Below are positions 16,290 to 31,566 of a stretch of 64,000 bases of DNA, piece by piece. This DNA is from Rhodocyclaceae bacterium UBA2346 (GTDB lineage Bacteria > Pseudomonadota > Gammaproteobacteria > Burkholderiales > Rhodocyclaceae). The position numbers were made by a program, and so were the translations under genes. Below the pieces are notes generated by a model, which saw only the letters and a program-made list of their open reading frames with translations, made no database searches and was not told the origin of the DNA. Location: positions 1 to 64,000 of the forward strand of contig DDUE01000056.1 of assembly GCA_002344625.1 (NCBI GenBank), written 5' to 3'. How positions within the stretch are numbered: position 1 is the first letter of the stretch; each line of letters opens with the position of its first letter.

Positions 16290-16772
16290 TCAGAACATGC
16301 GCTGCGCCAAGGCCAGGACGACTACCGCGTAGATCGCGGCCATGAGATCGTCCACCATTACCCCGAAACCGTTCTTGAAGCGTCGGTCCAGCCATCCGAT
16401 CGGCCACGGTTTGACGATATCGAAGAATCTGAACGCGGCGAACGCCGCCAACCACCACACCCAATGGTGCGGCACGGTCATGAGTACCATGCAATAGGCG
16501 ACGATCTCGTCCCAGACGATCCCGCCATGGTCGGAAACACCGAGCGCCCGTCCGGCCACTTCGCACACATGACAGCCGAAGGCGAACAGCAGGATGATCG
16601 CCCCCCATTGGACAGCCACGTCGAAGACACCCAGCAGCAGGAACAATGGCAAGCCGACGACGGTCCCAACCGTTCCGGGCGCGACCGGGCTCAGGCCGGT
16701 GCCGAAACCGAGGGCGATGAAATGGAGCGGATTCGCCAGCAGGAAACCGCGGGGTATCGGCGAGGACTTCAT
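16290..16772 (-). CDS. pgpA: Phosphatidylglycerophosphatase A
   Basis: A 160-residue membrane phosphatase that dephosphorylates phosphatidylglycerophosphate in anionic phospholipid synthesis. The motif GTGLSPVAPGTVGTVVG (about 19-35) and the later SDHGGIVWDEIVAY and FRFFDIVKPWPIGWLD stretches are standard for PgpA. The gene leads the minus-strand arm pgpA-terC-terB-TPR. The roughly 200-base gap to terC leaves co-transcription open. In many betaproteobacteria pgpA sits instead beside thiL. Confidence 0.93.
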   Translation of the reverse strand: MKSSPIPRGFLLANPLHFIALGFGTGLSPVAPGTVGTVVGLPLFLLLGVFDVAVQWGAIILLFAFGCHVCEVAGRALGVSDHGGIVWDEIVAYCMVLMTVPHHWVWWLAAFAAFRFFDIVKPWPIGWLDRRFKNGFGVMVDDLMAAIYAVVVLALAQRMF

Positions 16773-17150
16773 GCGCCGGCTGCGCCCGGCGCGCTTTTGA
16801 TCAGGTTCATTTCAACAAATCCACATGACTGGTAAGATTCGACGCGATTGCCGGCCAAGCGAAGAAAGCACCGCCCGCAACCCGCCGCTGCGCACCGCTT
16901 GCGAGCCCGGAAGTCGGCCGCGACATGGCGCTTCACCGGTGCGATCCGGCTGTTGTTTGGCCGCATATCGTACCCGCAAATCGTCTTCTATAATCGGGAC
17001 GCGAGACCGGAAGGATCGAAATGGCGGGCTGCGCATCCACGCATCAAGGGCATGTTCCGGCGACGCCGGACAAGGCGCGCGCATTGCGGTTTAGCGCACG
17101 CCTCTCTGCTTGAAGGAAACCGCTTTTTCCAACCACGAAGGAATACGCAA
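16773..17150 (+). promoter_or_regulatory. Divergent pgpA/terD control region
   Basis: A 378-base gap between pgpA and terD. A perfect -10 hexamer TATAAT lies at 16989-16994, some 155 bases before terD, but no good -35 sits 16-18 bases upstream, which would suit activator-dependent or alternative-sigma control. The terD ribosome site is AAGGAA seven bases before the ATG. No gene is supported within the gap. Confidence 0.3.
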
Positions 17151-17726
17151 ATGGCTATCAGTCTGCAAAAGGGTGGCAACGTCAATCTGTCGAAGGAAGC
17201 GCCGGGCATGAAGAAGATGCTCGTCGGCCTGGGATGGGATATCCGGTCGACCGACGGTGACGCCTTCGACCTCGACGCGAGCGCCTTCCTGCTCAATTCC
17301 ACCGGCAAAGTTCGCTCCGACGCCGACTTCATCTTCTACAACCAGCCCAAGTCGCCCGACGGCAGCGTGGTGCACACCGGTGACAACCGCACCGGCGAAG
17401 GCGATGGCGACGACGAGTCCATCATCATCGAGCTCGACAAGGTACCGGCGGACATCGACAAGGTTTCGGTGTGTGTGACGATTCACGACGCCGAGGCCAA
17501 GCGCCAGAACTTCGGGATGGTGTCGAGCGCCTACGTCCGCTGCGTCGATGCGGTGACCAACGTCGAAGTCGCGCGCTACGACTTGTCCGAAGACGCGTCG
17601 GTCGAGACCGCGATGATCTTCGGCGAGGTCTATCGCCATGCGGGCGAGTGGAAGTTCAAGGCCATCGGCCAGGGCTTCAAGGGCGGCCTGGGGCCCCTCG
17701 CCAAGAACTACGGCGTCAACGTCTGA
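17151..17726 (+). CDS. terD: TerD-family protein (canonical, copy 1)
   Basis: A 191-residue beta-sandwich TerD-domain protein. It begins MAISLQKGGNVNLSK and has the acidic calcium-binding loop GDNRTGEGDGDDE at 77-89. QNFGMVSSAYVRCVD and the terminal GGLGPLAKNYGVNV are standard for TerD/TerE. TerD binds two Ca2+ and is thought to act in membrane-linked stress sensing rather than tellurite reduction. It opens the plus-strand arm. A second, very similar terD lies at 30991-31566. I chose the ATG with AAGGAA; the frame is open upstream without family resemblance. Confidence 0.95.
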   Translation: MAISLQKGGNVNLSKEAPGMKKMLVGLGWDIRSTDGDAFDLDASAFLLNSTGKVRSDADFIFYNQPKSPDGSVVHTGDNRTGEGDGDDESIIIELDKVPADIDKVSVCVTIHDAEAKRQNFGMVSSAYVRCVDAVTNVEVARYDLSEDASVETAMIFGEVYRHAGEWKFKAIGQGFKGGLGPLAKNYGVNV

Positions 17727-17735
17727 CGCCTGATG

Positions 17736-17758
17736 CCGGAGCGGCCTTGCCGCTCCGG
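17736..17758 (+). repeat. Perfect intergenic hairpin after terD
   Basis: A perfect 10-base-pair stem (CCGGAGCGGC, CTT loop, GCCGCTCCGG) sits in the 59-base gap between terD and the TerD-VWA gene. No T run follows, so it is not a classical terminator. It may be an attenuator or an mRNA-processing/stability element giving more terD than downstream message. Confidence 0.5.
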
Positions 17759-30005: not shown

Positions 30006-30017
30006 ACAACCCCCTGC

Positions 30018-30656
30018 TTACAGAACCACGTTGATCTCGGGCGGCGGTGGCGGCAGCGCGACCGCACTGCTCGAACCGCGGCTCTGGCTATCCTTCGAGA
30101 CGGTTTCGGAAACCCACTGGAAGAATTTCCCGAAACTCGCGGCATCCATGGTGTCGAGGCTGACCACATGCTCGGTCAAGCGCGTGAGCTGGGTCGGATC
30201 GGCCTTCGGACCGGCGGCACATGCCACCACCGCGGCGAATCCGGCCGCTCTCACCCTGGGAATGACCTCGGAGTATGCGAGCGTATCGGTGGGTTTGCCG
30301 TCGGTCAGGATCACCAGCATCGGCTTCCAGTCGCCCTTGGCCGTATCGGTGGATTTGCGCACCTCGCGCGCGACCTGCTCGCAGATGCGCTCGAGCGCCT
30401 CGCCGAGCAGGGTCGCGCCCGACCGGGGGCAAACGATCTCGGGCAGGATCACATCCACCACCGCCGTCATCGGCAGGACTTCCTTGATTTCTGAATCGAA
30501 GGTCGTGATCGATAGATGCACGCTGTCGAGCGCATAGGGATTGGTCCGCAGCGAACCGAGCAAGGCCTGCAGGCCCGCGTTGACGGCAACGATCGGTTCG
30601 CCATTCATCGACCCGGAGGTATCGATGCACAGATAAGTCAACAGCCTGCGAGTCAT
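30018..30656 (-). CDS. VWA-domain protein of the TerY module
   Basis: A 212-residue single VWA domain. MIDAS residues are DTSGS in CIDTSGSMNGEPI (about 10-22). VILTDGKPTDTL and the conserved PRSGATLLGEALE (threonine of MIDAS) follow. A Pro-rich end (LPPPPPEINVVL) may contact partners. GAGGTGA precedes the ATG at 30656. It opens the minus-strand signalling operon. Confidence 0.9.
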   Translation of the reverse strand: MTRRLLTYLCIDTSGSMNGEPIVAVNAGLQALLGSLRTNPYALDSVHLSITTFDSEIKEVLPMTAVVDVILPEIVCPRSGATLLGEALERICEQVAREVRKSTDTAKGDWKPMLVILTDGKPTDTLAYSEVIPRVRAAGFAAVVACAAGPKADPTQLTRLTEHVVSLDTMDAASFGKFFQWVSETVSKDSQSRGSSSAVALPPPPPEINVVL

Positions 30657-30990
30657 TGAGTCACCTCGAACACGGTTTTGTAATGAAACGAAACGGGGCG
30701 GCGCCCGGCCCGCCCGGTAGAGCCGATCACGTTGCCCGGCCGGGCCCATCGGCCCCGAAGGCGCTTCTTCCCACCTCCCGAAAAACCCCCTACACTCCCG
30801 CCGGCGGTCGTGACGTAACGTCGGCATCATGGGGCGCCCTCATTATCCGCACTGTCGTGCAAGAATGCCAAAGCCCCATGTCTGTCGCGCTGCCGCTGCT
30901 TGGGAGGACGCTGGACCAGCGGCGTTCGCGCGCCATGCGCCAGGCACTTTTTACACGTCGATCATTCTTTCACGCGAGGAAAAATACGCA
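30657..30990. other. Divergent VWA/terD intergenic region
   Basis: A 334-base gap between the start of the VWA operon and the second terD. TACACT at 30791-30796 could be a -10 for terD, but I found no convincing -35. No gene is supported in it. Confidence 0.35.
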
Positions 30991-31566
30991 ATGGCAATCA
31001 GTCTTCAGAAAGGTGGGAACGTCAACCTGAGCAAAACCGCGCCGACCATGAGCAAGATGATCGTGGGCCTGGGATGGGACGCGCGCGCGACCGACGGGGC
31101 CGAGTTCGACCTCGACGCGAGCGCCTTCATGCTGAACAGCTCGGGCAAGGTGCGCAGCGACAAGGATTTCATTTTCTACAATCAGCCCAAGTCGGAAGAA
31201 GGCTCGGTCGAATATGGCGGCGACAACAAGACCGGCGCCGGCGACGGTGACGATGAAACGATCGTCGTCGAGTTGTCGAAGGTTCCGGCCGATGTGGAGA
31301 AGATCGCGATCTGCGTGACCATCCACGAAGCCGACACCCGCCGCCAGAATTTCGGCATGGTCTCGGCAGCCTACGTACGCTGTGTCGATGCCGCCGGCAA
31401 CACCGAGGTCGCCAAATATGACCTTTCGGAAGACGCCTCGATCGAGACGGCGATGATCTTCGGTGAAATCTACCGAAGCAGCGGCGACTGGAAGTTCAAG
31501 GCGATCGGACAGGGTTTCCAGGGCGGTCTGGCACCGCTGGCGAAGAACTTCGGCGTGAACGTCTGA
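30991..31566 (+). CDS. terD: TerD-family protein (canonical, copy 2)
   Basis: A 191-residue TerD protein of exactly the same length as the first copy and mostly identical over the whole chain. The calcium loop here is GDNKTGAGDGDDE (77-89). Differences cluster in residues 31-40 and 70-80. GAGGAAAAATACGCA upstream gives the ribosome site, also like copy 1. It ends the ter island and is tail to tail with the LEA-type gene across a perfect inverted repeat. Different flanks suggest separate control from copy 1. Confidence 0.95.
   Translation: MAISLQKGGNVNLSKTAPTMSKMIVGLGWDARATDGAEFDLDASAFMLNSSGKVRSDKDFIFYNQPKSEEGSVEYGGDNKTGAGDGDDETIVVELSKVPADVEKIAICVTIHEADTRRQNFGMVSAAYVRCVDAAGNTEVAKYDLSEDASIETAMIFGEIYRSSGDWKFKAIGQGFQGGLAPLAKNFGVNV

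What the first reader, a model, noticed from the sequence alone, without database searches (positions are those of the whole stretch)
16290..31566. Ter island with complete sensing, phosphosignalling and biosynthetic parts
Four kinds of module interlock in 15 kb: terB/terC; five TerD-domain proteins; a tight ATP-grasp, PRTase, HAD, StiP-PELOTA, HpcH run; and a VWA-TerY-PP2C-kinase operon. Seen directly: overlaps (GTGA at 20909, 26-base overlap at 22077, TGATG at 22824, 8-base overlap at 23901) suggest translational coupling. Established knowledge: this gene set is the Ter-associated pathway predicted to make a nucleoside-like metabolite. Inference: the product and its trigger remain undefined, and the ligase plus lyase point to a ribosylated amino- or keto-acid derivative.
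Basis: partly seen in the sequence, partly recalled or inferred. Interest (0 to 1): 0.78.

Follow-up and report, generated by a model that had tools for sequence, protein, structure and literature searches.

The report
Ter stress island with ribose-transfer genes
This is a bacterial stress-response gene island of a known kind (Ter), whose metabolic genes probably attach ribose to an unknown molecule; comparison with relatives suggests which genes form its core, that one gene is probably misnamed in databases, and that a membrane-lipid gene travels with some of these islands.

The parts
14488..14940 (-). TerB
   Evidence: PF05099 E 1e-27; outside the finding's range
15046..16095 (-). TerC membrane protein
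   Evidence: PF03741 E 8.8e-42; outside the finding's range
16290..16772 (-). PgpA, island-borne second paralogue
   Evidence: PF04608; second copy in the genome at G000:C74, following a ThiL-like ORF (ThiL recognised by eye); six island copies form one group 97/93
17151..17726 (+). TerD
   Evidence: PF02342 E 1.1e-86
17786..19135 (+). TerF-like: TerD + vWA
   Evidence: PF02342 + PF10138; DISAS MIDAS-like motif seen in the ORF (motif recalled)
19300..19881 (+). TerD
   Evidence: PF02342
19890..20912 (+). ATP-grasp ligase (optional step)
   Evidence: PF15632 E 1.4e-39; absent at an intact junction in 5 of 80 related loci
20909..22102 (+). PRTase_2 + TRSP phosphoribosyltransferase
22077..22826 (+). 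HAD phosphatase
   Evidence: PF08282 weak; MPGP-family HAD-IIB model E 4.7e-11, below that model's own cut-off; D9, D11, T13, T63, K195, D224 invariant in 11 homologues
22826..23908 (+). StiP-PELOTA: PRTase-fold domain + L7Ae-like domain
   Evidence: PF11202, PF15608; AF2 pLDDT 87.5; PRTase fold; L7Ae by profile, E 0.0092
23901..24806 (+). HpcH/CitE-like C-C lyase
   Evidence: PF15617 E 2.2e-88; citrate lyase chains in the PDB, best E 9.5e-05
24910..26124 (+). TerA-like: TerD + C-terminal half without a Pfam match
   Evidence: PF02342 residues 3-165; TerA name recalled
26162..27664 (-). Protein kinase
   Evidence: PF00069 E 4.3e-09; HSDLGYNN and DLD motifs seen
27693..28958 (-). PP2C phosphatase
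   Evidence: PF13672 E 2.1e-35
28959..30005 (-). TerY-like: VWA + TerY_C
   Evidence: PF00092, PF15616
30018..30656 (-). VWA protein
   Evidence: PF00092
30991..31566 (+). TerD
   Evidence: PF02342 E 3.7e-85

Best explanation
A Ter stress-response island in a betaproteobacterium close to Zoogloeaceae (inferred from the nearest named relative). Its metabolic core is a PRPP-dependent ribosylation module: PRTase_2 (APRT-like fold) and StiP (PRTase fold, highest VIA score to the CriT ribosyltransferase) move ribose-5-phosphate from PRPP to acceptors, and the coupled HAD phosphatase removes the 5-phosphate, as CrpP does after CriT in Bcs3. HpcH and ATP-grasp make or tailor the acceptor; ATP-grasp is optional. 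The product is read by the TerD/TerB proteins and gated by the VWA-TerY-PP2C-kinase set, with output at the membrane through TerC and, here, an island-dedicated PgpA. Shown: genes, coupling, co-occurrence, predicted folds, intact HAD catalytic residues. Inferred: the chemistry, order of steps, acceptor, sensing and output.
Confidence: 0.53

Rival explanations
1. The module ribosylates RNA, not a free metabolite: StiP's L7Ae-like PELOTA domain docks on a structured RNA, its PRTase-fold domain transfers ribose-5-phosphate from PRPP to it, and HAD removes the phosphate.
For: PELOTA matches L7Ae chains by profile: IKPGIGEATRVLLRR of StiP lies over IKKGTNETTKAVERS; E303, R306, R311 are invariant in 18 diverse StiPs, phage ME3 and the distant L096 included; the highest VIA score is to a ribosyltransferase that acts on a polymer hydroxyl. 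PRPP-dependent ribosylation of RNA (Rit1) is known in eukaryotes (recalled).
Against: The Asn of the L7Ae motif is G, A or S in 17 of the 18 StiPs (N only in L096), so k-turn binding is doubtful; the L7Ae match is weak (best E 0.0092). HpcH and ATP-grasp have no role in this reading. Rit1 has another fold (recalled).
Confidence: 0.12
2. StiP is a cysteine protease, as its database name says, and the locus is a proteolytic stress switch.
For: Pfam description of PF11202 and RefSeq names.
Against: No invariant cysteine in 18 diverse homologues (C73 and C233 each lost in some); PRTase fold.
Confidence: 0.03
3. The island acts mainly as a phage, plasmid or xenobiotic exclusion system, with the metabolite as alarm signal; metal resistance is secondary. 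Compatible with the best explanation.
For: Proposed in PMC7824862 (passages), which reports Ter genes in jumbo phages; ME3 carries the PRTase-HAD-StiP set; 1683 of 2567 plasmid records with a StiP match are predicted conjugative.
Against: Of ten island proteins scanned, only the kinase matched PADLOC models, weakly (best E 1.4e-05); nothing in the window shows the trigger.
Confidence: 0.2
4. Neighbours by history only: TerY set, TerD genes and metabolic cassette are separate units that share an island without acting together.
For: Kinase, PP2C or TerY matches in only 16 of 80 loci.
Against: A TerD match near the cassette in 43 of 44 loci with full flanks, and a TerD gene in phage ME3 just upstream of PRTase-HAD-StiP.
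Confidence: 0.1

Closest known systems
Ter-associated biosynthetic and TerY phosphosignalling islands (Anantharaman, Iyer, Aravind 2012; not held, known here from reference lists, later papers and recall)
   Same: Same gene families, several of whose Pfam descriptions name the Ter operon
   Different: ATP-grasp shown here to come and go among relatives; island-dedicated pgpA. Whether the 2012 paper reports either could not be checked
Aromatoleum aromaticum EbN1 plasmid 1 island (NC_006823.1, L103)
   Same: TerY-VWA-TerD-VWA-PgpA on one strand, TerD-ATP-grasp-PRTase-HAD-StiP-HpcH-TerD on the other
   Different: On a plasmid; two VWA genes with a TerD between them and a TIGR00266 gene; no TerF-, TerB- or TerC-like gene seen in the fetched stretch
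Bcs3 CrpP-CriT of Haemophilus influenzae type b capsule synthesis (PMC10299916)
   Same: PRTase-like ribosyltransferase paired with a HAD phosphatase; StiP's highest VIA score
   Different: One fused polymerase that makes capsule; about 10% identity; catalytic residues not mapped onto StiP
Serratia R478 (IncHI2) ter locus (L102)
   Same: ATP-grasp-like ORF (32% identity), PRTase, HAD, StiP, HpcH, VWA-TerD-VWA-TerY-PP2C-kinase, terZ, TerA-, TerB-, TerC- and TerD-like genes
   Different: 42% StiP identity; no PgpA among the listed features of the stretch (that gene table is incomplete); terW present
Ter genes of Acinetobacter jumbo phage ME3 (L104)
   Same: TerD, VWA, PRTase_2-HAD-StiP with overlapping ORFs; reported in PMC5000817 and PMC7824862
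   Different: 23-31% identity; no ATP-grasp or lyase annotated beside them

Membership tests
Ter island | TerD-domain proteins | tested here: met
   Five, PF02342
Ter island | TerB and TerC nearby | tested here: met
   PF05099, PF03741 at 14488-16095
Ter island | Biosynthetic cassette ATPgrasp_Ter, PRTase_2-TRSP, HAD, StiP-PELOTA, C-C lyase | tested here: met
Ter island | VWA-TerY-PP2C-kinase set | tested here: met
Ter island | Makes a nucleoside-like metabolite on stress | not testable with these tools
   Prediction in print only
Phosphoribosyltransferase (StiP) | PRTase core fold | tested here: met
   on a predicted model
Phosphoribosyltransferase (StiP) | Double acid in the PRPP loop | tested here: not met
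   Invariant D151-G152-W153 instead; CriT also departs from the double-acid motif
Cysteine protease (StiP name) | Invariant catalytic cysteine | tested here: not met
   No cysteine invariant among 18 homologues
HAD phosphatase | Catalytic motifs I-IV | tested here: met
   D9 D11 T13, T63, K195, D224 invariant, D220 nearly, in 11 sequences; motif names recalled
CriT-type ribosyltransferase (StiP) | CriT catalytic residues D680 and E818 | tested here: inconclusive
   Fold match only; residues not mapped
L7Ae-type RNA binder (PELOTA) | GxNExTK contact motif (recalled) | tested here: inconclusive
   GIGEATR in the window: E kept in 18 of 18, Arg for Lys in 18 of 18, Asn only in L096
Known anti-phage systems (PADLOC 2023) | Match to a system's proteins | tested here: inconclusive
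   Ten proteins; only the kinase gave weak domain hits, best E 1.4e-05

The most novel reading that the evidence does not exclude
StiP-PELOTA with its coupled HAD is a ribosyl-transfer machine of the CriT/CrpP type aimed at RNA: a bacterial, partly phage-borne system that adds ribose to a structured RNA under stress. In a subtype, a dedicated PgpA lineage couples the response to membrane phosphatidylglycerol.
Probability: 0.1. Interest if true: 0.85.

Novelty: new member of a known kind. Interest (0 to 1): 0.42.

Why it matters
The Ter system is widespread (StiP matches in 2567 of 72,556 plasmid records, mostly Enterobacteriaceae), yet its chemistry is unknown and StiP carries a name that its predicted fold and its conservation do not support. 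A PRTase-fold StiP paired with a HAD phosphatase gives a precise bench test (PRPP consumption, ribose transfer, 5-phosphate release), and the conserved kernel says which genes to reconstitute first.

Tried and rejected
Obligate five-gene pathway: rejected for ATP-grasp. StiP as cysteine protease: rejected. PgpA as chance neighbour: rejected as unlikely; a plasmid search with PgpA gave 23 records, of which only EbN1 was examined for Ter neighbours. Defence-system membership: no useful PADLOC match. Promoter and terminator scans: at chance level. Rfam at gathering scores: only two tRNAs. StiP in IMG/VR: none confirmed, but its search patterns came from near relatives, so divergent phage copies such as ME3 would be missed. 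StiP single-sequence search of the PDB: six hits, the best (1r0k, E 0.0013) a reductoisomerase over 50 residues, not followed. TRSP fold: not covered by the structure matches, left open. Composition: the island lies within the window's range of GC, and 20001-22000 has its highest value (0.693); no clear sign of recent import. Papers: nine searches. One search (PgpA with Ter terms) gave 42 papers, 10 listed; only PMC3759002 of those listed holds 'phosphatidylglycerophosphatase', and it was not read. One search found no paper holding three of six ribofuranose/PRTase/HAD/Ter/StiP/PELOTA terms. That the StiP-CriT likeness or an island PgpA is unreported is not shown, since the 2012 paper could not be read. 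Confidence in the best explanation was lowered slightly (0.55 to 0.53) on rechecking, because the second Bcs3 chain ties with PyrR.

Full report
Observation. The window holds a Ter island in a partial genome (1.75 Mb in 89 contigs, 53% complete). Two corrections: terB and terC lie at 14488-16095, outside the stated range, and the range opens with pgpA (16290-16772). The plus-strand genes from TerD (17151) to the TerA-like gene (26124) run in one direction; the VWA-TerY-PP2C-kinase set runs on the minus strand and converges on them.

Relatives. A scan of one genome per species found 247 places that encode a StiP relative; the best 80 were kept, so what follows describes the nearest 80. The nearest, L006 (a Zoogloeaceae MAG, 87% StiP identity), repeats the layout from TerB to the TerA-like gene, where the contig ends. 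By tblastn at E 1e-8, HAD is near StiP in 80 of 80, HpcH in 79, PRTase_2 in 78, ATP-grasp in 68. Of the 12 without ATP-grasp, five (L034, L048, L049, L070, L071) are cut by a contig end inside PRTase_2; L016 is a HAD-StiP pair whose genome holds ATP-grasp and lyase on another contig; L018 holds partial HAD and HpcH matches with no PRTase_2 match upstream. The remaining five (L008, L014, L030, L053, L074) have TerD running straight into PRTase_2 with gaps of 8-197 nt (in L053 the TerD gene is itself cut by the contig end). Their genomes hold no strong ATPgrasp_Ter match: best E 2.8e-6, against 1.7e-37 to 4.1e-42 in the other three genomes searched. Four of the five have only carB-sized frames; the genome of L074 also has a 466-aa frame at E 2.8e-6. 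The family is not specific at weak scores: it rings in 13 of 14 control genomes, and two of the five pass its cut-off by such weak frames. Completeness of these genomes was not told, so a copy in a missing part is possible. On the StiP tree (quick method) the absence needs 5 changes, at least 4 forced by starred branches, read here as losses; L030 and its sister L027, 88% alike, differ in it (seven cut or odd loci left out of one count, kept as 'other' in the table, same result).

Wider sampling. In 300 genomes of the order (own included, at least 90% complete otherwise) StiP and PRTase_2 pass their cut-offs in the same 5 genomes and lie within 2 kb of each other; 11 further PRTase_2 matches at E 0.001 or better lie under the cut-off. 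None of the nine other sampled members of the window's family has StiP. In 184 genomes of the class 7 pass for StiP, own included. In the ten StiP genomes other than the own, PRTase_2 is over the cut-off in 10, the lyase strong in 9, ATPgrasp_Ter strong in 4; four more pass the ATPgrasp_Ter cut-off through weaker frames (E 1.3e-10 to 1.4e-6; two carB-sized only), which might include replacements. HAD matches lie beside StiP in 8 of the 10 (L093, L094, L095, L097-L101); in L096 an ORF with HAD motifs follows StiP; in L092 none was found. Jumbo phage ME3 carries TerD, then PRTase_2-HAD-StiP with overlapping ORFs, and no lyase or ATP-grasp is annotated beside them; a phage search with the lyase hit only the unannotated faecal scaffold L105, and ATP-grasp was not searched in the phages. 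The Ter genes of ME3 are already in print (PMC5000817, whole text; PMC7824862, passages). The most stable kernel is therefore PRTase_2, HAD and StiP.

PgpA. Five genomes chosen because their island has a PgpA (window, L006, L010, L046, L085) each hold two PgpA genes, one in the island, one elsewhere; the EbN1 plasmid record holds one, in its island. Of 40 other genomes in the order, 36 have one PgpA and 4 none. The second copy of this genome follows a ThiL-like ORF (recognised by eye). In a tree of 40 PgpA sequences (6 island, 5 second copies of the same genomes, 29 of the 36 order genomes with one) the six island copies form one group (97/93); the bootstrap had not quite settled, and L149 has an unusual make-up. 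Island PgpA is found in 4 of 80 loci, many of them with short flanks, so this is a subtype. It lies beside TerC-TerB (window, L006), beside VWA genes of the TerY operon (L010, L046, EbN1) or after the kinase (L085).

Mechanism and standing. The best-supported account is PRPP-dependent ribosylation with dephosphorylation, feeding a signal to TerD/TerB and the phosphosignalling set. Tellurite resistance itself does not need the cassette in Klebsiella genes tested in E. coli (PMC8115787, passages). The island is a new member of a known kind. Whether the acceptor is a small molecule or RNA is the open and testable question.

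Noticed in passing
16290-16772: Island-dedicated second pgpA paralogue; six island copies, one on a plasmid, form one group apart from chromosomal pgpA.
   Followed up: yes
L104 7178-11068: Jumbo phage ME3 carries TerD plus an overlapping PRTase_2-HAD-StiP set, with genes annotated Appr-1-p processing and NAD synthetase a few kb upstream; its Ter genes are already in print.
   Followed up: partly
L083 4777-5496 and 30 other loci: A protein cluster found in 31 of 80 loci; it may be the TIGR00266 protein annotated in the EbN1 island, by eye and position only. 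None was noticed in the window's island.
   Followed up: no
L103 12313-13378: Bax inhibitor-1 family and HPF/RaiA ribosome-associated genes next to the EbN1 Ter island.
   Followed up: no
L016 5360-7191: A HAD-StiP pair without lyase or PRTase match nearby, in a Methylobacter MAG whose genome has ATP-grasp and lyase on another contig.
   Followed up: partly
L061: TerD-, TerA- and TerB-like genes lie between PRTase_2 and HAD, a 2416-nt gap in an otherwise tight run.
   Followed up: no
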